IMG/VR virus record: IMGVR_UViG_3300007640_000020
Coordinates: 1 to 33,816 of that record
Reading direction: 5' to 3' (one strand)
Origin: a virus
Length of the DNA stretch: 33,816 nucleotides
Below, piece after piece: positions 1 to 33,816 of this stretch. The translations under genes were made by a program, and so were the position numbers. The first letter of the stretch is position 1, and each line of letters opens with the position of its first letter. The notes below the pieces were generated by a model that worked only from the letters and a program-made list of their open reading frames with translations, had not been told where the DNA came from and searched no databases.

Positions 1-123
1 AGTGAATTTGAGCCGTTAAATTTTGCCATAGGTGAATTAGAAGACCGTCTTTATGAGATGGCTGCAAGCGGTGATACAACGAGCGACACTTTCAAGGAAA
101 TGTCAGCCGAGGTTGGTCGTATG
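1..123. repeat. Terminal direct repeat marking contig circularity
   Basis: These 123 bases are identical to 33694-33816. Both copies lie in the same frame of the tape measure gene, so joining them restores one uninterrupted protein. I read this as the assembly overlap of a circular or circularly permuted genome rather than a true packaged terminal repeat, because a real repeat ending inside a structural gene would be unusual. Confidence 0.95.
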
Positions 124-1863
124 AAGAAAGCTATTATCGACACAGATTTAGCTATTGATAGTATGGCGCAAACTACGGCACAAAATATGGGCGGTGCTTT
201 AGGTGGAGTAACGGCAGGTTTTGAACTTGCGGCAGGTTCTATGGCGGTATTTGGTGTTGATAGTGCAGCGGTAGAAGAGCAACTATTAAAAGTTCAATCA
301 GCAATGGCGATAAGCCAAGGGTTGCAAGGTATAAAAGAAAGTATATCTAGCTTCAAGGCTTTAGGTATGATGATTAAATCTACTACTGCCTTTCAATGGT
401 TGCTTAATGTAGCAATGAACGCAAACCCTATTGGTTTAATTCTAGCAGGTGTAGCAGCGTTAGGTGCAGCGATATATGCCTTATGGTCGCCTATTAAAAA
501 GCTACGTGATTACTTCCTAGGTGTAAACGATAACCTTGTGGCGGTTAACGGTGAGTTAATGACAGCGATAGAGGGAGCAGAGAAGTTAGGGAAAATACTA
601 GATAATAATAATAAGGCACTAGATAAGCTAATAGAAGCAAGTAGAAAACGAGGGCAACAGGCTTTAGAGTTATTAGAAGCTGAGGGTGCAAGTGATGAAG
701 AAATACATAAGCAAAAACTTAGAAACCTTAAAGACGAAGAAACATTTAGAGTAGCAAAGTTAAAAGCAGCACAAACTTCCTATGATTCTGAAAAGATAGC
801 GTATAAAGCGTTAGTAAAAGAGGGTAGAGACGAAGAAGCTAAAGCACTTAAAGAAAAGCTACAAACTTATAAGGATAACATAGAAGAGTTAAAAGCAGCG
901 GATGGTGATTACTATCACAATAAGAAAGTTTTAGACATTGAAGAACAAAAGCGAGTAGAGCAACAACGTAAAGACGATTACGCAAAATATAAAGCACACC
1001 TAGAGCGTAAACTTGCTACTGAAAGAGAGATAGAAGACAGAAAGTTAGCTTTAACATTTGACAACGAAAAGAAAGAGCAAGAAGCAAGTAGATTACAATA
1101 CGAAAGGGAGTTAGCAGATTCTAAAAGCCGTATTTTTGAAAGTGCAGAACAGCGTGAAGAGTTTGAAACAATACTTGCACAAGAAGCCTTTGAACGTAGA
1201 AAAGAGATTAGCGCGAAATGGGAAGCAGAGATAAGTAACATAAAGCTAGAAGGTGTTAAGCGTGAAGAGGAAACGATAGCAGAGTATAAAGCACAGGTAA
1301 GAGAAGAGCAAGTACAAGCAGACACTACCCACATTCAAGAAGATATAGACAATGCTAAAGCAGCAATGAACGCACGTTTAGATATTGCTAAAAGTGGTTT
1401 TCAAGCATTAAGCGACTTAGCAAATGTATTTGCAGGAGATAGTGAAGCGCAACAAAGAAAAGCGTTTAACATAAATAAAGCAGCAGGTATTGCACAAGCG
1501 ACAATAGAAACTTATCAAGCAGCAAGTGGTGCTTATGCTTCTCAAATGTCTATACCTTCACCAGATGCACCTATTCGTGCAGCAGTTGCAGCAGGTATTG
1601 CTGTTGCTTCTGGTATTGCTAGGGTTGCAGCTATTGCAAAAACTCAATTTGGTGGTGCAGGTGGTGTATCGTCAACAAGTGTAGGTGGTTCTGTACCAAC
1701 TGCTGAGGCAAGACCTGCCCAATTCAATGTAGTAGGTAATACAGGAACTAACCAACTAGCAGAAACTTTAGGAAGTCAACCTTTAAAGGCTTACGTAGTA
1801 GGTGCAGACGTAACAACACAACAAAGTTTAGATAGAAACAAGACTAATACGGCGAGTTTATAA
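1..1863 (+). CDS. Tail tape measure protein (3' part, crosses contig ends)
   Basis: This is the C-terminal 620 residues of the tape measure protein, which sets tail length and lies inside the tail tube. The frame is open from base 1 and continues from 33598 across the circular junction, giving 652 aa in all. An ATG at 58 is internal. A hydrophobic stretch (bases about 397-486, residues about 165-194 of the full protein, with WLLNVAMNANPIGLILAG) is typical of tape measure proteins. A long charged coiled-coil region follows (bases about 580-1340), then a Gly/Ala/Ser-rich tail. It follows the large tail genes and precedes the protease and capsid genes. Function is inferred from architecture, size and position. 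Confidence 0.88.
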   Translation, partial: SEFEPLNFAIGELEDRLYEMAASGDTTSDTFKEMSAEVGRMKKAIIDTDLAIDSMAQTTAQNMGGALGGVTAGFELAAGSMAVFGVDSAAVEEQLLKVQSAMAISQGLQGIKESISSFKALGMMIKSTTAFQWLLNVAMNANPIGLILAGVAALGAAIYALWSPIKKLRDYFLGVNDNLVAVNGELMTAIEGAEKLGKILDNNNKALDKLIEASRKRGQQALELLEAEGASDEEIHKQKLRNLKDEETFRVAKLKAAQTSYDSEKIAYKALVKEGRDEEAKALKEKLQTYKDNIEELKAADGDYYHNKKVLDIEEQKRVEQQRKDDYAKYKAHLERKLATEREIEDRKLALTFDNEKKEQEASRLQYERELADSKSRIFESAEQREEFETILAQEAFERRKEISAKWEAEISNIKLEGVKREEETIAEYKAQVREEQVQADTTHIQEDIDNAKAAMNARLDIAKSGFQALSDLANVFAGDSEAQQRKAFNINKAAGIAQATIETYQAASGAYASQMSIPSPDAPIRAAVAAGIAVASGIARVAAIAKTQFGGAGGVSSTSVGGSVPTAEARPAQFNVVGNTGTNQLAETLGSQPLKAYVVGADVTTQQSLDRNKTNTASL

Positions 1864-15224: not shown

Positions 15225-15421
15225 AAGTACATATAGAAAACAGGGGATGTAGCATATTAGACGGACTGCAAGCAGTTAAGCAGTATATTATAGATTATAG
15301 ATATAAAGAAACTTTAGGAACAAGCGGAACAAAAGTTTTTCATGTTAGAGGTTCTAATCATGTTTCGTGTAAAAAAACTAAAACAGGTAATTATACTTTT
15401 ACGGTATGGTTGGCCAAGTAA
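15221..15421 (+). CDS. Hypothetical protein (66 aa)
   Basis: This 66-aa basic protein (MKVHIENRGCSILDGLQAVK, ending TGNYTFTVWLAK) overlaps the DnaA-like gene by an ATGA junction. It looks like a small alpha/beta domain. No function can be assigned. Confidence 0.6.
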   Translation: MKVHIENRGCSILDGLQAVKQYIIDYRYKETLGTSGTKVFHVRGSNHVSCKKTKTGNYTFTVWLAK

Positions 15422-15431
15422 ATATATAGAT

Positions 15432-16067
15432 ATGAAAGTAACAGATAAGATAGAGATAACAAACGAAGACAACATGGCTTTAATGGCTAGATATCCAGAT
15501 AACTATTTTGATTTGGCTATAGTAGACCCACCTTACGGATTAGGTGATAGGCTCTCTAATGGTGGTGGAAAAAGAAAAAACGACCCATCAAGATTACTTT
15601 ATGTAGATAAAGATTGGGATTGTTTGCCAACTGCTGAATATTGGAAGGAATTATTTAGAGTTTCTAAAAATCAAGTTGTTTTTGGTGCAAATTATTTTAT
15701 TGAACATTTACCAAACACAAGGGGTTTTGTTTGTTGGGATAAAAAACAGGCAATGCCGACCCTTTCTGCTTGCGAATTAGTTTGGACTTCTCTAGATAAA
15801 CCTGCTAAAATAATGAAAAAGACAAGTACAGACCTTAATAGATTTCATCCAACTCAAAAACCAACATACGTTTATGAATGGATGTTTAAGTATTGCAAAG
15901 TAGAAGAAGGGATGAATATCTTAGACACTCATCTAGGAAGCGGAAGCAGTGCTATAGCTTGTCACAATTTAGGTTTTGAATTAACAGCTTGTGAGTTAGA
16001 CGCGGATTATTACGATGCTTCAATCAAACGAATTAAGAATCATATAGCACAACAAAGATTATTTTAA
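15432..16067 (+). CDS. DNA methyltransferase A (beta-class N6-adenine/N4-cytosine)
   Basis: This 211-aa protein carries motif IV DPPYG (residues 32-36) near the N-terminus and motif I-like HLGSGSSAIA near the C-terminus, the order of beta-class amino-methyltransferases. I start it at 15432, not at an upstream in-frame ATG at 15342, because its N-terminus then aligns exactly with its paralog at 18828 (MKVTDKI.ITNEDNM). The N-terminal 36 and C-terminal about 50 residues are nearly identical to that paralog while the middle differs. It probably methylates phage DNA to evade restriction; no endonuclease partner is present. Confidence 0.85.
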   Translation: MKVTDKIEITNEDNMALMARYPDNYFDLAIVDPPYGLGDRLSNGGGKRKNDPSRLLYVDKDWDCLPTAEYWKELFRVSKNQVVFGANYFIEHLPNTRGFVCWDKKQAMPTLSACELVWTSLDKPAKIMKKTSTDLNRFHPTQKPTYVYEWMFKYCKVEEGMNILDTHLGSGSSAIACHNLGFELTACELDADYYDASIKRIKNHIAQQRLF

Positions 16068-16085
16068 AAAACTTTACTATATTCG

Positions 16086-16212
16086 CAACCATTAGGCAAC
16101 TATTTACGTCTATACAATAGGTCGCTCTCACACCATAAGACCACGAGCATTATTTTAACCCTTATTTGGGAGCTAGAGGTGAGAGCCTAGCTTTTAGATA
16201 GGGGTTTTTTAT
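16086..16212 (+). ncRNA. Candidate structured RNA with loop-loop complementarity
   Basis: This gap has no ORF. GGTC (16120-16123) and GACC (16139-16142) enclose a loop containing GCTCTCAC (16124-16131). AGCTAG (16171-16176) and CTAGCT (16187-16192) enclose a 10-nt loop containing GTGAGAGC (16179-16186), the exact complement of the first loop. AACCC (16157-16161) can pair with GGGTT (16202-16206), and a T-run follows. A promoter-like TATATTCG lies at 16078-16085 but lacks a clear -33. Either a small RNA or a 5' leader of the next gene; some may simply be a terminator. Confidence 0.4.
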
Positions 16213-16227
16213 TTTAATTTATTTTAT

Positions 16228-16422
16228 ATGATTTACAAATTATTAGATTCGCAAGACCAAGAAAAATGTATTGAAATTCAAATTACATCTTCACAAGATA
16301 TTGAGTTAACAATTTATGAACATCTTCAACATTCAACAGAAGTAAATAGCGTTATTATAGATAAGAATAATTTATACACGTTGATTGGTGCTTTACATTC
16401 AATTCAGAAACAACTAAACTAA
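16228..16422 (+). CDS. Hypothetical protein (64 aa)
   Basis: This 64-aa protein (YKLLDSQDQEKCIEIQI, then VIIDKNNLYTLIGALHSIQ) appears to be a small alpha/beta domain. It is the first gene after the structured intergenic RNA and leads into the replication initiator gene with 6 bases between. No family recognised. Confidence 0.6.
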   Translation: MIYKLLDSQDQEKCIEIQITSSQDIELTIYEHLQHSTEVNSVIIDKNNLYTLIGALHSIQKQLN

Positions 16423-16428
16423 AAAACT

Positions 16429-17052
16429 ATGAAGCTGACAAAAAGAAAAGCGTTTAAGTTCTTTAGAAGTTATTACGATGTCTATAACGAACTTGAAAAA
16501 GATAAGGATAAGATAGCCTTTATTGAGGCATTGCTAGATAAGCAATTCTTAGGTAAAGAACCAACCGAGTTAACAGGTATTGCAAAGTTTGCTTACATTA
16601 GCCAAGTCAACAGTATAGATTCGCAAGTGTCTGGTTATGAGACTAAAACAGGTACTACCCTAGGGGGTAGCATAGGGGGTACGCAAGGGGCTTCACTACA
16701 GGAGAAAGAGAAAGAGGAAGAGGAAGTACAATACAGTATAGATTTTTCTTCATTATTAGACTTCATAAACACCACGACTAAACGCAGTTTTAAAACTATA
16801 AACAAATCCGTAAAACAATCGTATATTGCAAGGCTTAAAGATGGATATACTAAAGACGATATTAAACAAGCGATTACAAACGCTGTAAACACTCAATACC
16901 ATAAAGACAATAACAACCAATACTTAACACCAGAGTTCTTTAGTAGAAGCGCAACGTTAGATAAGTATAGCCAAACTGCGGAGAGTACGATGATAGAAGA
17001 CCCTGTTGTTAAAATGGCTATGGAGTTAAACAAGAAATACGAAAATAGATAA
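16429..17052 (+). CDS. Replication initiator-like protein (DUF6291 / Phg_2220_C type)
   Basis: This 207-aa protein has an N-terminal segment like DUF6291 (FFRSYYDVYNELEKDKDKIA, FIEALLDKQF), a low-complexity linker (LGGSIGGTQG then EKEKEEEEV), and a C-terminal domain like the conserved phage Phg_2220_C domain (LLDFINTTTKRSFKTINKS, then LKDGYTKDDIKQAI, ending YLTPEFFSRSATLDKY). Such proteins act as replication organisers, likely loading the helicase encoded two genes downstream. Confidence 0.75.
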   Translation: MKLTKRKAFKFFRSYYDVYNELEKDKDKIAFIEALLDKQFLGKEPTELTGIAKFAYISQVNSIDSQVSGYETKTGTTLGGSIGGTQGASLQEKEKEEEEVQYSIDFSSLLDFINTTTKRSFKTINKSVKQSYIARLKDGYTKDDIKQAITNAVNTQYHKDNNNQYLTPEFFSRSATLDKYSQTAESTMIEDPVVKMAMELNKKYENR

Positions 17053-17054
17053 TT

Positions 17055-17798
17055 ATGATAGAATTAATACAAGGCGACTGCTTAGAAGTAATGAAAGATA
17101 TACCCAGCGGTTCAATAGATGCTATTATAACAGACCCACCCTACGGAACAACAGCCTGTAAATGGGATAGTGTTATTGACTTTGAATTGATGTGGGAGCA
17201 ACTGAACAGAATTATTAAACCTAATGGTGCAATAGTTTTATTTGGTAGTGAGCCGTTTAGTAGTGCTTTACGAATGAGTAATATTAAGAATTATAAATAT
17301 GACAATATTTGGAATAAGGTTAGGAAAACAGGGCACTTAAATTGCAATAAACAACCCCTTAATATTTATGAAAATATATCTATTTTTTACAAAAAGCAAT
17401 GTACTTATAACCCACAAAAAACAACAGGTCACAAAAGTTATGACAAATCAAAATACAATACTAAAGAAAAATACTCACCCAATGTTTATGGTAAACTTCA
17501 CAGGAACGAAAAGAAGAACGAAGGCGAAAGACACCCGACAAAACTGGTTAAATTTTCACAGGATTGGAAAAGGCAAGACCAAATGCACCCAACACAAAAA
17601 CCAGTAGCACTAATGGAGTACCTAATTAAAACTTACACCAACGAAAATGAAACGGTTTTAGATTTTACTATGGGTTCTGGTAGTACTTTGGTAGCTTGTC
17701 AGAATACAAACAGGAACGGCATAGGAATAGAGAAAGACGAAAACTATTTTAAGATTGCACAGCAACGGATAAAAGAAAATGAATATAAACTATTTTAA
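17055..17798 (+). CDS. DNA methyltransferase B (beta-class)
   Basis: This 247-aa protein has N-terminal LIQGDCLEVMKDIPSGSID, motif IV DPPYG (residues 27-31) and C-terminal motif I DFTMGSGSTLVAC, with HPTQKPVALMEYLI before it. This is the beta-class arrangement used by N6-adenine and N4-cytosine methylases. It is only distantly like methyltransferases A and C and has its own central target-recognition region. It lies between replication initiator and helicase-like genes, so it is expressed early. Confidence 0.87.
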   Translation: MIELIQGDCLEVMKDIPSGSIDAIITDPPYGTTACKWDSVIDFELMWEQLNRIIKPNGAIVLFGSEPFSSALRMSNIKNYKYDNIWNKVRKTGHLNCNKQPLNIYENISIFYKKQCTYNPQKTTGHKSYDKSKYNTKEKYSPNVYGKLHRNEKKNEGERHPTKLVKFSQDWKRQDQMHPTQKPVALMEYLIKTYTNENETVLDFTMGSGSTLVACQNTNRNGIGIEKDENYFKIAQQRIKENEYKLF

Positions 17799-17800
17799 CT

Positions 17801-18697
17801 ATGATACTAAGTAAAGGATCAGATAATGAATATCTACTAGACTACAAACACGATAGGTTAGTAAAAGGTTTAGGTATCGGTTGCGAGTTAGACAAGCACC
17901 TAAGATTTAAACGAGGGCAATACAACGGAGTGCTAGGTGGTAACAACGTAGGAAAGACTTACTTTATGACTTGGTATTTTCTTTGTCTATCAATTAAACA
18001 CGGTTTAAAGTGGGGGTTGTGGATGGATGAAAACAAGAAGGGTAGAGTGTTGAGAGATTTAGTACAGTTCTATACGGCTAGAAAACTTAAAGACTTAACC
18101 GATAAACAAGTACTAGACACGGTTGCAATACTAGAAGATTGGTTTTACTTTGTGGACAATAGACAAATGTATAAGCCAGAAGAGTTATTAGCTTTGTTTG
18201 AGCCGTTGGATATTGATGGGGTTTTACTAGACCCATTTAACCAACTTAACAGACCTGTTGGATATTCTGAAAACATACCATTCATAAGAAACTTGAAACA
18301 TTGGTGTAAGGTAAACGACAAAACATTATATTTAACGATGCACCCGAACACAGAAACACAAAGAAAGAGTAGCCAATATCCAGAAGGACATATTTGGGCA
18401 GGGCAACCCCAAATGCCCCTAAAGCACAATAGTGAAGGCGGGAGTACCTTTTCCAATATGAGCGATGATTGGATAAACCTAAACAGATTAAACAAACTAG
18501 AATCTATGAAGTACATAACAATGGTAGATATAGACAAGGTTAAAGATGTTGATAGCGGTGGTTCAATTACCCAAAGCGAAGAGCCTTTAATGTTTCACTT
18601 TAATAACGGTTTAGGTTTTGAAATCATGGGAATTAATCCAATACAGGAAGCACTTAAACAAAAAAATAGTATATTGCAACCATCAAACGATTTTTAA
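17801..18697 (+). CDS. RecA/DnaB-fold ATPase, probable replicative helicase
   Basis: This 298-aa protein has a Walker A GGNNVGKT (residues 46-53) and a Walker B-like IDGVLLDPF (Asp143) in the spacing of RecA/DnaB superfamily 4 ATPases. YLTMHPNTE around residue 180 resembles the sensor/DnaB H4-type strand. It lacks an N-terminal DnaB domain. Given the initiator-like gene just upstream, it is likely the phage helicase; a RecA-like (RepA-type) single-domain helicase is the closest description. No primase domain is seen. Confidence 0.72.
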   Translation: MILSKGSDNEYLLDYKHDRLVKGLGIGCELDKHLRFKRGQYNGVLGGNNVGKTYFMTWYFLCLSIKHGLKWGLWMDENKKGRVLRDLVQFYTARKLKDLTDKQVLDTVAILEDWFYFVDNRQMYKPEELLALFEPLDIDGVLLDPFNQLNRPVGYSENIPFIRNLKHWCKVNDKTLYLTMHPNTETQRKSSQYPEGHIWAGQPQMPLKHNSEGGSTFSNMSDDWINLNRLNKLESMKYITMVDIDKVKDVDSGGSITQSEEPLMFHFNNGLGFEIMGINPIQEALKQKNSILQPSNDF

Positions 18698-18699
18698 TT

Positions 18700-18831
18700 A
18701 TGAAGAAAAAACTAAAAGAGTTACAAGAATTGGTAGACAAGTACGGTTATTGGTCAAGAGAAGTTAGAGAATTTAATGCTACTTTAGACTATGATATTAT
18801 GAAAGTTTTAAATAGTAAGGTTAAGAGATGA
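18700..18831 (+). CDS. Small GYW-motif protein B (43 aa)
   Basis: ATG at 18700 directly follows the helicase stop, and the TGA at 18829-18831 overlaps the next ATG. The 43-aa product KKKLKELQELVDKYGYWSRE and onward is a clear paralog of the protein at 13072: G-Y-W-S-x-E-V, F-N-x-x-L-D-Y-D align. Conservation between two loci is good evidence that both are real genes. Function unknown. Confidence 0.75.
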   Translation: MKKKLKELQELVDKYGYWSREVREFNATLDYDIMKVLNSKVKR

Positions 18832-19508
18832 AAGTAACAGACAAGATAACAATCACGAACGAGGATAACATGGAGTTAATGAAACGCTATCCAGATAACT
18901 ATTTTGACCTATCGATAGTTGACCCACCTTACGGAATAGATATTGCTAAAAATGGTAAACTAAAAAGCAACTCTAAATTTGATAGAGGGTTTAAAAAAGA
19001 CATTGATTATGGTGCTAAAAATTGGGATTCAGAAATACCGTCTGAAGAATATTTTTTAGAGTTGCGTAGAGTTAGTAAAAATCAAATTATTTGGGGTGGT
19101 AATTATTTTATTTCCTTTTTAGATAATACACCTTGTTATGTAACTTGGTATAAAAAAGGAACGGATAAAAACCACAGATTTTCACCAACTGAATTAGCTT
19201 GGACTTCCTTTGATAAAAAGCCTTTTTTTATAGACTTGCCTTGGATTGGGTTTGGGTATTTAAACAACCCACTTAAAGAAAAAAAAATACATCCTTGCCA
19301 TAAGCCTATAAACTTGTATCAAGAAATATTAAATAACTTTGCAAAAGAAGGCGATAAAATACTAGACACGCATTTGGGCGGTGGAAGCATTGCAATAGCA
19401 TGCCACAATTTAGATTTTGAATTAACAGCGTGTGAGTTAGATAAGAAATACTTTGATGCAAGTATAAAGAGAATACAAAACCATGTTTCACAACAAAGAC
19501 TATTTTAA
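18828..19508 (+). CDS. DNA methyltransferase C, paralog of A
   Basis: This 226-aa beta-class methyltransferase carries DPPYG (residues 32-36) and C-terminal HLGGGSIAIACHN. Its first 36 residues and last 50 are nearly the same as those of methyltransferase A, including ELTACELD and (S/A)QQRLF, but the central target-recognition part is different (GYLNNPLKEKKIHPCHKP against RFHPTQKP). Probably it modifies a second DNA sequence. The ATGA junction ties it to the small gene before it. Confidence 0.85.
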   Translation: MKVTDKITITNEDNMELMKRYPDNYFDLSIVDPPYGIDIAKNGKLKSNSKFDRGFKKDIDYGAKNWDSEIPSEEYFLELRRVSKNQIIWGGNYFISFLDNTPCYVTWYKKGTDKNHRFSPTELAWTSFDKKPFFIDLPWIGFGYLNNPLKEKKIHPCHKPINLYQEILNNFAKEGDKILDTHLGGGSIAIACHNLDFELTACELDKKYFDASIKRIQNHVSQQRLF

Positions 19509-19510
19509 TT

Positions 19511-19744
19511 ATGAAAGAAGAAACAATTTTATTATGCACCGAATGTTACACAGGCGAGTTAAACACTTTATGGAGTGGAGACGAGGGTTGGAATGTATGC
19601 CCAGAATGTAACAGTGTTGAAGGTGGTTACTTTGAGTTATCACTTGATGAGTACGAGAGTTTAGATGGCTTGGATATTATGGCAAAGGTTGACGAATTAA
19701 GAGAGCGTGAAGCATTCCAAACTATTAAAATTACAAGACTATGA
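19511..19744 (+). CDS. Small zinc-ribbon protein (77 aa)
   Basis: This 77-aa acidic protein has two CxxC pairs (Cys9/Cys12 and Cys30/Cys33) that should bind one zinc ion, followed by an acidic helix. It stands between methyltransferases C and D and overlaps D by 4 bases. It might be a methyltransferase partner or a transcription-related peptide; nothing in it decides. Confidence 0.65.
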   Translation: MKEETILLCTECYTGELNTLWSGDEGWNVCPECNSVEGGYFELSLDEYESLDGLDIMAKVDELREREAFQTIKITRL

Positions 19745-20526
19745 AAGTAAATGAAATATATAACGAAAACTGCCTTGATACAATGGCAAGAATGGAAGAT
19801 AACTTTATTGACTTAACGGTTACATCTCCTCCTTATGATAATCTAAGAACGTATAACGGATATAGTTTTGATTTTGAAAGTATAGCAAAAGAGCTTTACA
19901 GAGTAACTAAAGATGGGGGTGTTGTTGTTTGGGTTGTTGGAGATGCAACAGTTAAAGGAAGTAAAACAGGTACGAGTTTTAAACAGGCTTTATATTTTAA
20001 AGAATGTGGTTTTAATTTTCACGATACAATAATATGGCAGAAACCCAATTACGCACCAATGTACCCAAGTGTAAAAAGGTATGATAACAATTATGAGTTT
20101 ATGCTTGTATTTAGTAAAGGTCAACCAAAATCTTGGAACCCAATAAAAGACAAAGTGAAAGCTGAATCAAGTAAAAAAAGAAGTAAATACAAAAGAAGTT
20201 TTATTAATAAAGATGGAAGTAGAAAAAGTAAAGAATCTACTGATAATAATTCTGACTTTTCAAAACGGAATAATATTTGGATAATACCAAACGGACAAAT
20301 AAGAGGTTTAAAACACCCTGCGGTATTTCCCGAACAATTAGCAAACGACCACATAACAAGTTGGAGTAATAAAGGAGATATTGTTTATGATTGCTTTATG
20401 GGAAGCGGAACAACTGCAAAGATGGCTTTATTAAATGATAGATATTATATTGGTTCTGAAATATCAGAAGAGTATTGCGAAATAATAGAACAAAGACTAA
20501 ACCCAACACAAACTAAATTACTATGA
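19741..20526 (+). CDS. DNA methyltransferase D (SPPY type, likely N4-cytosine)
   Basis: This 261-aa protein has motif IV TSPPY (residues 28-32), typical of N4-cytosine methylases, and motif I near the end as CFMGSGTTAKMA. YRVTKDGGVVVWVVGD is the motif VI/VII-like strand. It is the fourth methyltransferase in this genome and the only one with SPPY. The Lys/Ser-rich insert (residues about 140-175) may be the target-recognition region. Confidence 0.87.
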   Translation: MKVNEIYNENCLDTMARMEDNFIDLTVTSPPYDNLRTYNGYSFDFESIAKELYRVTKDGGVVVWVVGDATVKGSKTGTSFKQALYFKECGFNFHDTIIWQKPNYAPMYPSVKRYDNNYEFMLVFSKGQPKSWNPIKDKVKAESSKKRSKYKRSFINKDGSRKSKESTDNNSDFSKRNNIWIIPNGQIRGLKHPAVFPEQLANDHITSWSNKGDIVYDCFMGSGTTAKMALLNDRYYIGSEISEEYCEIIEQRLNPTQTKLL

Positions 20527-23327: not shown

Positions 23328-23343
23328 TCGTTATATAAGTATG
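23312..23343 (+). promoter_or_regulatory. Bipartite motif, copy C, at the sigma factor gene
   Basis: CGAATTAACTAATT then AATCGTTATATAAGTATG, ending on the sigma gene's ATG. By my count 25 of 32 positions match copy A at 6231-6262, including CTAATT, TCGTT and ATAAGTATG at the same spacing. This suggests autoregulation by the phage sigma factor. Confidence 0.4.
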
Positions 23344-23844
23344 CTAATTAAAGAAATAAGCGAAAGACATCAAGACTGGGTAGATATTGTCAAGACTTTT
23401 GGCGGTGGTGTTTACTCAGAAGATATAGTGCAAGAGATGTATTTAAAGATACACAAGCTAGATAAAGAAGTAAATCATAGTTACGTATGGCTAACACTCC
23501 GTTCTATTTTTTACGATGTAACAAGAGTAAAGAGTAAAGTAGACGAGGTTGGGATAGGTGAGAACTTCCAAGTGTTTGAAGAATTGAAAGATAACGGTTT
23601 TGAAGATGCTTACGAAGAGCTGACTTATAGAGTAAACAAAGAGATTAAGTCTTGGTGTCATTACGACCAGAAACTATTTAAACTCTATACACAAACAGAC
23701 ATGAGTTTAAGAGATATACACAAGGGAACTAATATAAGCCTAACGAGTATCTTTAACACTATAAAGAATTGTAAAGCTAGAATGAAAGCTGCGATAGGCG
23801 AAGATTATGAGGACTTAATAAACGGAGATTATGATAAACTTTGA
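23341..23844 (+). CDS. Phage RNA polymerase sigma factor (ECF-like)
   Basis: This 167-aa protein has the two-domain layout of small sigma factors. Region 2 is visible at residues 24-60 (YSEDIVQEMYLKIHKLD, then YVWLTLRSIFYDVTR), and region 4 as a helix-turn-helix at residues 108-150 (YDQKLFKLYTQTDMSLRDI, then ISLTSIFNTIKNCKARMKAA). It would redirect host RNA polymerase to phage late promoters. The related motif before it and two late genes supports this. It overlaps the next gene by 14 bases. Confidence 0.78.
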   Translation: MLIKEISERHQDWVDIVKTFGGGVYSEDIVQEMYLKIHKLDKEVNHSYVWLTLRSIFYDVTRVKSKVDEVGIGENFQVFEELKDNGFEDAYEELTYRVNKEIKSWCHYDQKLFKLYTQTDMSLRDIHKGTNISLTSIFNTIKNCKARMKAAIGEDYEDLINGDYDKL

Positions 23845-26737: not shown

Positions 26738-27023
26738 AAAAGGAGAAAGCGGAAATAAAACAGGCAGACCAAAGGGAGCAGAGAATAAACTAACTAAAGC
26801 AGCTAGAGATGTCTTTATAGAAACACTAGAAGGACAGGTAGACAATATACAAGATGCATTTGATAAAGTGCTTAAAGATAGTCCTGCTAGATATTTAGAT
26901 TTATTCGCTAAGTACGCTCAATACTTTGTACCTAAGAAAACAGAGACAGATATTAAAGGAGAGTTAAGAGGTAGCTTTGATTTTAACAAGACACTAAAGA
27001 AGTTAAGGGGAGAAGATGATTAA
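26727..27023 (+). CDS. terS: Terminase small subunit
   Basis: This 98-aa protein has the N-terminal basic KKGESGNKTGRPKGAEN motif found in Bacteroidetes TerS and DUF5681-type proteins, then two helices (LTKAARDVFIETLEGQV and YLDLFAKYAQYFVP) and an acidic end. It would bind the packaging site and guide TerL. It overlaps the large subunit gene by 8 bases, which fixes its role. Confidence 0.75.
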   Translation: MPFKKGESGNKTGRPKGAENKLTKAARDVFIETLEGQVDNIQDAFDKVLKDSPARYLDLFAKYAQYFVPKKTETDIKGELRGSFDFNKTLKKLRGEDD

Positions 27024-28215
27024 CGAAAAGTACTTAGTACTAGATGAGCCTAGCAGATACTTTATCGTAACAGGTGGGCGTGGTTCTGGTAAGTCTTATT
27101 CTATCAATACTCTTCTATGTTTACTTACGGCAGAAGCAGGACACACTATCTTATTTACTAGGTACACATTAAGAGCTGCAAGTATATCAATCATTCCAGA
27201 GTTCTTAGAGAAGATAGAGGTGTTAGATATGCAAGAGCAATTCCACATAACTAAAGACGAAATAATAAACCTAAACACAGGGAGTAAGATACTGTTCAGA
27301 GGTATTAAAACAAGTAGTGGTAACCAGGTAGCTAACCTTAAGTCTTTACAAGGTGTTACAACGTGGGTACTAGATGAAGCAGAGGAACTAATAGACGAAA
27401 AGATATTTGACACTATAGACTTATCGGTAAGGCAGAAGGGAATACAGAACAGGGTTATAATGATAATGAACCCAACAACTAAAGAGCATTTTATCTATAA
27501 TAGATTCTATGAGGGTAAGGGAGTTCAAGAGGGGAGTAACCTAACTAAAGGAGATACAACTTACATACACACAACATACTTAGACAACATAAACAACCTT
27601 TCAGAATCATACATAAACCAAATAGAAGACATTAAGAAGCGTAGACCAAAGAAGTACGCACATCAAATACTTGGTGGTTGGTTAGATAAAGCAGAGGGTG
27701 TTATCTTTGATAATTGGAAGTTAGGAGAGTTCAAGCACGTTGGTAAGAGTGTATTCGGTCAAGATTTTGGGTTTAGTGTTGACCCTACAACGTTAGTAGA
27801 AACGAATATAGACAGCACAAATAAAACCATCTATCTTAAACTACACTACTACAAGCCTAACTTAACTACATCTCAGATAGCAGAGTTAAACAATAGGATA
27901 GCAGACAACGCTTTAATAGTTGCGGATAGTGCAGAGCCTAGGCTTATTAGTGAACTACTAGCAAAGGGCAATAACATACTACCAACTATAAAGGGTGCAG
28001 GTAGCGTTACGTTTGGAATAAGCATGATGCAAGACTACGATTTAATCATAGACCCAGATAGTACAGAACTCATTAAGGAGTTAAATAACTACTGTTGGTT
28101 AGAGAAGAAGAGCAACACACCAATAGACAACCACAACCACGCCATAGATGCTATTAGATACGCTGTAAGTTATCAATTAGATAATCCAACAAGAGGTGAG
28201 TACTTTATAGGATAA
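27016..28215 (+). CDS. terL: Terminase large subunit (packaging ATPase/nuclease)
   Basis: This 399-aa protein is a clear TerL of the PBSX-like type. Walker A is GGRGSGKS (residues 20-27), Walker B with catalytic Glu is TWVLDEAEE (Asp120, Glu121), the coupling motif area is IMIMNPTTKEHFIYNRFYEG, and the nuclease acidic residues are Asp250 (GQDFGF), Asp304 (VADSAEP) and Asp378 (HNHAIDAIRYA). It translocates DNA into the prohead and cuts it. Length is normal for this subfamily. Confidence 0.95.
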   Translation: MINEKYLVLDEPSRYFIVTGGRGSGKSYSINTLLCLLTAEAGHTILFTRYTLRAASISIIPEFLEKIEVLDMQEQFHITKDEIINLNTGSKILFRGIKTSSGNQVANLKSLQGVTTWVLDEAEELIDEKIFDTIDLSVRQKGIQNRVIMIMNPTTKEHFIYNRFYEGKGVQEGSNLTKGDTTYIHTTYLDNINNLSESYINQIEDIKKRRPKKYAHQILGGWLDKAEGVIFDNWKLGEFKHVGKSVFGQDFGFSVDPTTLVETNIDSTNKTIYLKLHYYKPNLTTSQIAELNNRIADNALIVADSAEPRLISELLAKGNNILPTIKGAGSVTFGISMMQDYDLIIDPDSTELIKELNNYCWLEKKSNTPIDNHNHAIDAIRYAVSYQLDNPTRGEYFIG

Positions 28216-28313: not shown

Positions 28314-28345
28314 ACAATTTCTTCTTATTTCGTTTAATAAGTATG
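28314..28345 (+). promoter_or_regulatory. Bipartite motif, copy B (candidate phage sigma promoter)
   Basis: ACAATT, 8 bases, then TTTCGTTTAATAAGTATG ending on the chaperone gene ATG. The last 18 bases are identical to copy A at 6245-6262, and ACAATT has the same spacing. Both copies come just after a strong terminator, where a new transcript must start. Confidence 0.5.
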
Positions 28346-29026
28346 GACATCAAGTTAACAATACCAACAGAGCAAAAAGATATAAGCCTTAGACAGTTTC
28401 AAGAGTTTGCTAAACTAGGTGAGGCGCAAGATGAAAACTTCCTACAGCAGAAGATGATAGAGTTATTCTGTAACGTTAGGCTTAATCAAGTTTTATTCAT
28501 AGACCACAGAGAGGTTAAGAGGTTAAGCGAAGATATCACAGAGATACTAAACCGTAAACCAGAGCCTATTTATAGGTTTAAGATTAAAGGGCAAGAGTTT
28601 GGTATGATACCTAACCTTGAAGCAATGACCTTTGGCGAATACGTAGACCTTGATACCTACATAGGAGATTGGCAAACGATGCACAAAGCAATGGCTGTTC
28701 TATTTAGACCAATAGACGTTAAGCATAAAGATAAGTACACCATATACCCATACACAGGAGCAGATGAATTTGCAGACCTTATGCAGTTTATGCCTTTAGA
28801 TGTTGTAATGGGTGCAATGGTTTTTTTTTATCGTTTAGGGAACGAATTACTGAAAGCTACCCAAAGCTATTTAGTGGAGGAAGTAAGGGAGATGGTTTCA
28901 ACTACAGACAACAATTTTCCCAAAAGTATGGATGGTATAATTCAGTCTATACACTCGCAAAGGGAGATATTAATCAACTTGATAGAGTTACAGAGTACGG
29001 AGTTAGACAATGCCTTACCCTATTAA
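28343..29026 (+). CDS. Tail assembly chaperone, short form (G-like)
   Basis: This 227-aa protein corresponds to the tail assembly chaperone that helps wrap or recruit the tape measure and tube subunits. It has SLRQFQEFAKLGEAQDENFL near the start, a middle with VDLDTYIGDWQTMHKAMAVL, RPIDVKH.DKYTI.PYTG, and a helical end (LGNELLKATQSYL). A T9 run inside it (28821-28829) gives a frameshift to a longer product. It is the first gene of the tail module, five genes ahead of the tape measure gene. Confidence 0.7.
   Translation: MDIKLTIPTEQKDISLRQFQEFAKLGEAQDENFLQQKMIELFCNVRLNQVLFIDHREVKRLSEDITEILNRKPEPIYRFKIKGQEFGMIPNLEAMTFGEYVDLDTYIGDWQTMHKAMAVLFRPIDVKHKDKYTIYPYTGADEFADLMQFMPLDVVMGAMVFFYRLGNELLKATQSYLVEEVREMVSTTDNNFPKSMDGIIQSIHSQREILINLIELQSTELDNALPY
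28821..28829 (+). other. Slippery T9 site for -1 programmed frameshift
   Basis: In frame 0 the codons are GTT TTT TTT TAT, so T TTT TTT (28822-28828) is a perfect -1 slippery heptamer. Slipping moves translation into a frame that is open to 29085. That frame has no ATG until its last three codons, so it cannot start by itself with ATG. Confidence 0.7.
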
Positions 29027-29085
29027 ATTACGAAGCAGATAAGCAAGAGGTAGAGAACCTTATAATTAAACAAAGCATGAAATGA
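28828..29085 (+). CDS. Frameshifted C-terminal extension of tail assembly chaperone (GT-like)
   Basis: After a -1 slip at the T9 run, the frame reads 85 codons ending at TGA 29083-29085. The product includes FSQKYGWYNSVYTLAKGDIN and then LDRVTEYGVRQCLTLLNYEA, which is the style of the C-terminal part of Bacteroidetes tail chaperones. The fusion would have about 247 residues against 227 for the unshifted protein. The TGA overlaps the next ATG (ATGA), tighter than the 55-base gap left by the short form. Confidence 0.7.
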   Translation, partial: LSFRERITESYPKLFSGGSKGDGFNYRQQFSQKYGWYNSVYTLAKGDINQLDRVTEYGVRQCLTLLNYEADKQEVENLIIKQSMK

Positions 29086-29534
29086 CAAGTTTTTACGATG
29101 TAACACAAACTATAAAAACCCAATTACTATTAGATGAGTACTGCAATACGGTAAACTTTGGCAATATAGATGAAGTACTTTTAAATAAGCAAGACATCTA
29201 TCCTTACTCACATCTTATACTTAACCAAGCTACGTACGAAGGTAAACTAATGAGGTTTAACTTGTCTGTAATATGTATGGATATAGTAGACATAAGCAAC
29301 GATACAACAACAGATATATTTTTAGGGAACGATAACTTGCACGATATACTTAACACACAATTAGCGGTTATCACAAGATTATTAGAGGTATTACGTAAAG
29401 GGAGTAGTGCTAATACATTCATGTTAGATGGTAACGCAACGCTAGAGAACTTTACAGATAGGTTTGAACATGGTGTAGCAGGATGGACTGCAACATTTGA
29501 TATAGTAATTAACCATGCTATGACAAAATGCTAG
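29082..29534 (+). CDS. Neck or tail completion protein (150 aa)
   Basis: This 150-aa protein (FYDVTQTIKTQLLLDEYCNT, then VDISNDTTTDIFLGNDN, ending ATFDIVINHAMTKC) has the length and mixed fold of tail terminator or neck proteins placed before gp10-like genes. It starts in an ATGA junction with the frameshifted chaperone and overlaps the following gene by 7 bases. Function is inferred from order and size. Confidence 0.55.
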   Translation: MTSFYDVTQTIKTQLLLDEYCNTVNFGNIDEVLLNKQDIYPYSHLILNQATYEGKLMRFNLSVICMDIVDISNDTTTDIFLGNDNLHDILNTQLAVITRLLEVLRKGSSANTFMLDGNATLENFTDRFEHGVAGWTATFDIVINHAMTKC

Positions 29535-33464: not shown

Positions 33465-33613
33465 TAAAGACAATATTAGAATTATTAAGTACAAACGAAT
33501 ACTTAGGGCAAAGCGAATTAATAGACATTGCTAAAGGTAAGTATGAATTAACTACGGACTTAAAAGGTAAGCGTAGACAAAGAAAACAAATAGAAGCATG
33601 GCAAAAGAAGTAA
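33461..33613 (+). CDS. Hypothetical small basic protein before tape measure (50 aa)
   Basis: ATG 33461 overlaps the previous TGA as ATGA and the frame runs to TAA 33611-33613, 16 bases inside the tape measure gene. The 50-aa product starts MIKTILELLSTNEYLGQSEL and ends in a Lys/Arg/Gln-rich segment (KRRQRKQIEAWQKK). Coupling to both neighbours supports it. No family recognised. Confidence 0.6.
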   Translation: MIKTILELLSTNEYLGQSELIDIAKGKYELTTDLKGKRRQRKQIEAWQKK

Positions 33614-33816
33614 GATTAAAACTAACAGCAGACGCTTCACAAGCGGAAAAGGCTTTAGCTAAATTTGGTGCTTCCTTAAAAGATATAAGGGAGAGTGAAT
33701 TTGAGCCGTTAAATTTTGCCATAGGTGAATTAGAAGACCGTCTTTATGAGATGGCTGCAAGCGGTGATACAACGAGCGACACTTTCAAGGAAATGTCAGC
33801 CGAGGTTGGTCGTATG
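33598..33816 (+). CDS. Tail tape measure protein (5' part, runs off the end)
   Basis: ATG 33598 (MAKEVRLKLTADASQAEKAL) starts the tape measure protein, whose frame continues without a stop to base 33816 and, after the 123-base repeat, resumes at base 1 in the same frame. Residues 1-32 come from 33598-33693 and the rest from 1-1863, 652 aa in all. An N-terminus of this kind (KLTADASQAEKALAKFG) is common in tape measure proteins. Confidence 0.88.
   Translation, partial: MAKEVRLKLTADASQAEKALAKFGASLKDIRESEFEPLNFAIGELEDRLYEMAASGDTTSDTFKEMSAEVGRM
33694..33816. repeat. Terminal direct repeat, right copy
   Basis: Exact copy of bases 1-123. It shows that the sequence closes on itself. Confidence 0.95.

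What the first reader, a model, noticed from the sequence alone, without database searches (positions are those of the whole stretch)
28343..29085. Tail assembly chaperone with a -1 programmed frameshift at T9
The T9 run holds T TTT TTT in the right phase for a -1 slip. The -1 frame is open from 28768 to 29085, has no usable ATG, and encodes a convincing tail chaperone C-terminus (QKYGWYNSVYTLAKGD). Its TGA overlaps the next ATG. Lambda G/GT uses the same strategy; here the slip site is 66 codons before the short form's end, so the two products differ over a long C-terminal stretch.
Basis: partly seen in the sequence, partly recalled or inferred. Interest (0 to 1): 0.78.

Follow-up and report, generated by a model that had tools for sequence, protein, structure and literature searches.

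The report
Phage tail chaperone with T9 slip
A phage gene, probably the tail assembly chaperone, makes two proteins with different ends by slipping on a run of nine T's; the run has been kept in hundreds of related phages in a pattern that fits slipping by the RNA-making enzyme better than slipping by the ribosome.

Summary
T9 (28821-28829) lies in a 227-aa ORF (28343-29026). The -1 frame encodes an 85-aa C-terminus (28828-29085) with no usable start, whose TGA overlaps the next ATG. In 394 of 395 frameshifted loci (335 distinct; N-domain identity down to about 25%) the conserved C-domain lies in the -1 frame behind an uninterrupted run of 9-11 T. The one exception has T8, in a 68% GC contig. 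In one nested clade of four contigs the two domains share one ORF, and there the run is gone. So a programmed switch making a 247-aa fusion is very well supported. The 0-frame tail is a real second product: it stays open longer than chance, and synonymous divergence falls to 0.21 (0.39 in single-coded sequence). The tail-chaperone role rests on context (tail operon, tape measure), architecture and a weak fold match to HK97 gp13. I differ on mechanism. The run slides relative to the codons and its phase varies, yet it is always at least 9; ribosomal slippage needs only 7 in phase. No downstream RNA structure or Shine-Dalgarno-like stimulator is seen. T9 is the classic length for RNA-polymerase slippage. 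I judge transcriptional slippage the likelier mechanism (about 0.7), unproven without RNA sequencing.

The parts
28343..29026 (+). 0-frame ORF, 227 aa: short-form chaperone (N-domain plus 0-frame tail)
   Evidence: PHROG 32199 (function unknown) E 2e-14; AF2 N-domain pLDDT about 95
28343..28819 (+). shared N-terminal domain
   Evidence: conserved in more than 550 matching stretches of IMG/VR; weak fold match to HK97 tail assembly chaperone 2ob9, Z 3.5, residues 1-73
28821..28829 (+). T9 slippage run (in-phase T TTT TTT at 28822-28828)
   Evidence: at least 9 T in 394 of 395 frameshifted relatives; absent in the single-ORF clade
28828..29085 (+). -1 frame extension, 85 aa plus stop: C-domain of the 247-aa fusion
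   Evidence: C-domain found in the -1 frame in all 395 frameshifted loci; all-helical AF2 model, pLDDT 73
28829..29026 (+). dual-coded stretch: alternative 0-frame tail overlapping the -1 frame
   Evidence: open 66 codons against 6-16 expected; synonymous divergence of the -1 frame roughly halved where the 0 frame is open
28836..28838 (+). TAG in the +1 frame, 2 codons past the run: ends any product of U8 or U11 transcripts early
   Evidence: +1 frame closes within 0-3 codons in 105 of 116 representatives
27016..28215 (+). terminase large subunit (upstream neighbour)
   Evidence: PF04466 E 6e-33
29082..29534 (+). next tail/neck gene; its ATG overlaps the TGA of the -1 frame
   Evidence: phrog_30964, function unknown
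1..1863 (+). tape measure protein, 3' part (its 5' part is 33598-33816 across the circular join)
   Evidence: phrog_9483 tail length tape measure protein E 6e-16; 123-base terminal repeat

Best explanation
The gene encodes the tail assembly chaperone pair of a siphovirus-like phage, probably of Bacteroidota. Most transcripts carry U9 and give the 227-aa short form. RNA polymerase slips on the nine T's, and transcripts with one extra U (U10) put the ribosome, decoding normally, into the -1 frame. This gives a 247-aa fusion of the same N-domain with an 85-aa helical C-domain. U8 or U11 transcripts stop within a few codons. The short form has its own selected C-terminus that continues the last N-domain helix. 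By analogy with lambda gpG/gpGT, the N-domain would coat the tape measure protein and the C-domain would recruit tail tube subunits. Shown here: the frame architecture, its conservation, selection on both C-termini, loss of the run when the domains share a frame, and run length rather than phase being conserved. Inferred: slippage by RNA polymerase rather than the ribosome, the chaperone role, and the partners.
For: (1) 395 frameshifted loci: C-domain always -1, run at least 9 T in 394, never a length that puts both domains in one frame. (2) Run phase 0, 1 or 2 and start positions -10 to -6 relative to the C-domain model, with at least 14 changes of phase or length class on the tree, yet never under 9 in these loci. 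Phase-2 runs need 7 T for ribosomal slippage but have 9, 10 or 11 (84 distinct loci). (3) C at the last heptamer position is synonymous in both frames and allowed by X_XXY_YYZ; none in 92 representatives, P about 4e-5 from codon usage. In L183, L186, L195 and L242 a C occurs there, but the run is extended upstream to T10. (4) In the single-ORF clade (L262/L336, L333, L334, L335), nested inside T9 lineages, no T run of 6 or more remains near the junction. (5) No downstream RNA structure (mean z about 0) and no Shine-Dalgarno enrichment. (6) Efficient RNA-polymerase slippage at 9 A or T in vivo (PMC5009743); nine is the length at which selection against slippage appears in many genomes (PMC1088944). 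(7) 0-frame tail selected. (8) Tail context and HK97 chaperone as rank-1 fold match.
Against: No RNA or protein data. A run of 9 T in any phase necessarily contains an in-phase T TTT TTT heptamer, so ribosomal slippage remains possible. Ribosomal sites do not always need a strong stimulator. Two of the nine T's in the commonest arrangement are partly held by conserved residues in the two frames. Sequences are related, so counts are not independent events. The HK97 match is weak (Z 3.5), and sequence profiles give only marginal tail hits (phrog_166 in 19 of 79 members, best E 2e-4; Phage_TAC_7 in 2, E 0.04). L328 has T8.
Confidence: 0.7

Rival explanations
1. Classical -1 programmed ribosomal frameshifting at T TTT TTT, as in lambda G/GT; the T9 simply contains the heptamer.
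For: One or two in-phase T TTT TTT heptamers in every T9+ locus; the strategy is widespread in tail chaperones (PMC5009743). The fusion protein is identical under either mechanism.
Against: Only 7 T in phase are needed, or T TTT TTC, but runs are never under 9 in 394 of 395 loci whatever the phase; synonymous C at Z is absent; no stimulatory structure or Shine-Dalgarno-like element; the short-form stop is about 65 codons away here, against mean distances of 26-36 nt in annotated chaperone frameshifts (PMC10274946).
Confidence: 0.24
2. Two separate genes: the -1 frame ORF is translated on its own by reinitiation, as annotated in Nonlabens phage P12024L (genes 40 and 41).
For: P12024L_41 was called from an internal ATG.
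Against: No start codon before the C-domain in the window; conserved coding begins at the run itself (FLxFR); a clade encodes both domains as one ORF.
Confidence: 0.03
3. Phase variation by replication slippage, or homopolymer sequencing error in a gene that is really one frame.
For: Homopolymer runs mutate readily (general knowledge).
Against: No locus among 394 has a run length that joins the frames; the 0 frame is itself under selection; independent assemblies agree.
Confidence: 0.02

Closest known systems
Lambda gpG/gpGT tail assembly chaperones (Xu, Hendrix and Duda 2004)
   Same: Shared N-domain, -1 frame C-domain, overlapping frames, tail operon, two products from one start
   Different: No detectable sequence similarity; run of 9-11 T instead of a GGGAAAG-type heptamer; short form carries a long selected tail of its own; gene lies after the terminase, several genes upstream of the tape measure instead of next to it
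Transcriptional slippage at 9 A or T: Thermus dnaX, Shigella mxiE, IS transposases; at 11 A: Citrobacter tssM
   Same: Uninterrupted 9-11 nt A/T run, all three frames potentially reached, near stop in the third frame, no stimulatory structure needed
   Different: Here in a phage tail gene; slippage not measured
HK97 gp13 tail assembly chaperone (PDB 2ob9)
   Same: Rank-1 PDB fold match to the N-terminal 73 residues
   Different: Weak (Z 3.5); no sequence similarity; the N-domain here has a further beta/alpha part
Nonlabens phages P12024L/S (Inhavirus) genes 40/41
   Same: Homologous N- and C-domains with T9 at the junction
   Different: Annotated as two unrelated hypothetical proteins; 25% identical; 0-frame tail only 26 codons

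Membership tests
Lambda G/GT-type frameshifted tail assembly chaperones | short and frameshift-extended product from one start, frames overlapping | tested here: met
   395 loci, C-domain always in the -1 frame
Lambda G/GT-type frameshifted tail assembly chaperones | gene in the tail module, upstream of the tape measure gene | tested here: met
   about 4.5 kb upstream of the tape measure gene that starts at 33598 and crosses the circular join; not immediately adjacent
Lambda G/GT-type frameshifted tail assembly chaperones | sequence or fold relation to known chaperones | tested here: inconclusive
   HK97 gp13 Z 3.5 at rank 1; a BFVD 'tail assembly chaperone' at E 0.019; marginal profile hits
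Lambda G/GT-type frameshifted tail assembly chaperones | binds tape measure and tail tube, absent from virion | not testable with these tools
   needs pull-down and virion proteomics
-1 programmed ribosomal frameshifting | in-phase X_XXY_YYZ heptamer | tested here: met
   T TTT TTT in phase in all T9+ loci
-1 programmed ribosomal frameshifting | 3' structure or 5' Shine-Dalgarno-like stimulator (usual, not obligatory) | tested here: not met
   mean z near 0 downstream; SD-like motifs 8% against 11% control
Transcriptional slippage site | uninterrupted A/T run of about 9 or more, length conserved independent of phase | tested here: met
Transcriptional slippage site | heterogeneous run length in mRNA | not testable with these tools
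   needs RNA sequencing from infected cells

The most novel reading that the evidence does not exclude
A large, nearly uncultured family of phages, probably of Bacteroidota, sets the ratio of its two tail chaperones by RNA-polymerase slippage on a conserved 9-T run, not by ribosomal frameshifting, and makes a short form with its own selected C-terminus encoded in the overlap.
Probability: 0.68. Interest if true: 0.72.

Novelty: new variant of a known kind. Interest (0 to 1): 0.62.

Why it matters
Frameshifted tail chaperones are textbook ribosomal recoding. A phage family that does the same job at the transcription step would show that the two-product ratio, not the way of slipping, is what selection holds. 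I found no earlier report in the papers searched. The family gives hundreds of natural variants of slide, phase and length, plus a clade that escaped the need for slippage. That makes the transcription-or-translation question directly testable. It also names a common aquatic phage gene (PHROG 32199, function unknown) and corrects two-gene annotations.

Tried and rejected
Pfam and PDB sequence profiles of either domain: no real hits. Foldseek against PDB with the whole model: nothing below E 2. Foldseek against BFVD: homologues almost all unnamed. Search for a 3' stimulatory structure or 5' Shine-Dalgarno: none. tblastn in isolate phages reached only the Nonlabens P12024 phages. Chance openness of the 0 frame was considered and rejected. 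Phase variation and sequencing error were considered and rejected. The transframe fusion itself was not folded, because the fusion is not a plain translation of the window; the two domains were folded apart.

Full report
OBSERVATION. T9 occupies 28821-28829 inside ORF 28343-29026 (227 aa); the 0 frame reads GTT TTT TTT TAT CGT TTA. The -1 frame is open 28768-29085 with no start codon before the conserved region, and its TGA overlaps the ATG of the next gene at 29082. A separate metagenome record, L002, is identical over 5,483 bases, so the T count is not a single-assembly error.

RELATIVES. Four scans of viral contigs with N-domain queries and one with a C-domain query, plus one scan of genomes and one phage record, gave more than 400 loci besides the window. 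Identities to the window N-domain run from 100% to about 25%. The closest isolates are Nonlabens phages P12024L/S, where the two halves are annotated as unrelated hypothetical proteins; P12024L also has T9. With HMMs of the two domains, 395 loci have the C-domain in the -1 frame relative to the N-domain and 5 loci (4 contigs) have both in one ORF; none has it in the +1 frame. Of the 395, 394 have an uninterrupted run of 9, 10 or 11 T at the junction. The other, L328, has T8 in a 68% GC contig. After removal of near-identical copies 335 loci remain, 116 at 70% N-domain identity.

THE NATURAL CONTROL. The single-ORF loci (L262/L336, L333, L334, L335) form one fully supported clade nested among T9 lineages. 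There the junction carries no T run of 6 or more. So the run is kept only where the frames are split, and a fused product is viable and presumably the functional long form.

BOTH C-TERMINI ARE REAL. The -1 C-domain is conserved protein (F.F[RK]...KWGWY..IY.LA.GD...). The 0-frame tail is also selected. With the -1 protein held fixed and synonymous codons randomised, the 0 frame would stay open about 15 codons on average (25 with own-codon shuffles); it is open 55 on average, 66 in the window. In independent pairs, synonymous divergence of the -1 frame at codons with four or more synonyms is 0.21 where the 0 frame is open, 0.39 where it has ended and 0.41 in the N-domain (Fisher p 2e-21). The reduction holds in each position bin from codon 20 on, where dual- and single-coded codons can be compared. 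The tail is always at least about 16-20 codons long, and in the model it continues the last N-domain helix.

RIBOSOME OR POLYMERASE. Ribosomal -1 slippage needs T TTT TTN in phase: 7 T if the run starts at codon position 3, 8 at position 2, 9 at position 1. The observed minimum is 9 for all three starts: 84 distinct loci start at position 3 with 9, 10 or 11 T. Rearrangements are telling. L085/L237 read ATG TTT TTT TTT CTG. L173/L211 read AGG TTT TTT TTT GCT. L215/L230 have GCT TTT TTT TTG (L215) or a like arrangement. L183, L186, L195 and L242 carry a C at the usual last heptamer base but extend the run upstream to T10. On the protein tree the phase/length class changes at least 14 times without dropping below 9 in these loci (L328 is the exception). 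A C at the last heptamer base is synonymous in both frames and permitted by the heptamer rule; from codon usage it should appear in about 10% of sites, and it appears in none of 92 representatives (P about 4e-5, ignoring relatedness). Downstream RNA is no more structured than dinucleotide shuffles, and Shine-Dalgarno-like motifs are not enriched upstream. Efficient RNA-polymerase slippage in vivo is classically seen at 9 A or T (PMC5009743). Selection against slippage appears at nine nucleotides in many genomes (PMC1088944). Measured slippage at such tracts is about 15-55% (PMC4256274). One inserted U gives exactly the -1 product; the +1 frame (U8 or U11) closes within 0-3 codons in 105 of 116 representatives. 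I conclude that polymerase slippage is the likelier mechanism. The T9 always contains a ribosomal heptamer, so the ribosome is not excluded, and both may contribute.

FUNCTION. The gene lies between the terminase large subunit and tail genes, about 4.5 kb upstream of the tape measure protein, which spans the circular join (123-base terminal repeat). The N-domain model (pLDDT about 95) has HK97 tail assembly chaperone 2ob9 as its rank-1 PDB match in the second-look alignment, but only at Z 3.5 over 68 residues. BFVD adds a named tail assembly chaperone at E 0.019 among unnamed homologues. Some members hit tail profiles marginally. Together with the G/GT-like architecture this makes a tail chaperone the best call (about 0.85), by analogy and not by test. 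Several BFVD proteins match both domain models in one chain, again pointing to the fusion as a real protein. The host assignment to Bacteroidota rests on the Nonlabens isolates and on Winogradskyella and Bacteroidetes MAG contigs.

NOVELTY. Frameshifted tail chaperones and polymerase slippage are each known. I found no paper in the library joining them, nor one describing this family; most subscription journals are not covered. I file it as a new variant of a known kind.

Noticed in passing
1-123 and 33694-33816: The window ends carry a 123-base direct terminal repeat, so the record is probably a complete circular (or circularly permuted) phage genome; the tape measure gene runs across the join.
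   Followed up: partly
L262/L336, L333, L334, L335: A clade in which N- and C-domains are one ORF without the T run, so these phages appear to make only the long form or make the short form in another way.
   Followed up: partly
L328:1649-2335: A 68% GC relative with T8 (ATC TTT TTT TTG) at the junction, the only frameshifted locus with fewer than 9 T; its in-phase heptamer is T TTT TTG.
   Followed up: partly
23341-23844: Gene that looks like a sigma-70 region 2 protein by eye; the Nonlabens phage has one annotated at a similar place (P12024L_35). It might drive late transcription of the structural module.
   Followed up: no
15342-20526: Four DNA methyltransferase-like ORFs by eye (15342, 17055, 18828, 19741) in one early region.
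   Followed up: no
28836-28838: In most relatives xTTTAR just past the run puts a stop in the +1 frame 2 codons on; it may be a by-product of dual coding or a guard against U8/U11 products.
   Followed up: partly
L085, L087, L088: Contigs binned into Epsilonproteobacteria, Euryarchaeota and Pseudooceanicola MAGs carry this family; probably mis-binned viral contigs.
   Followed up: no
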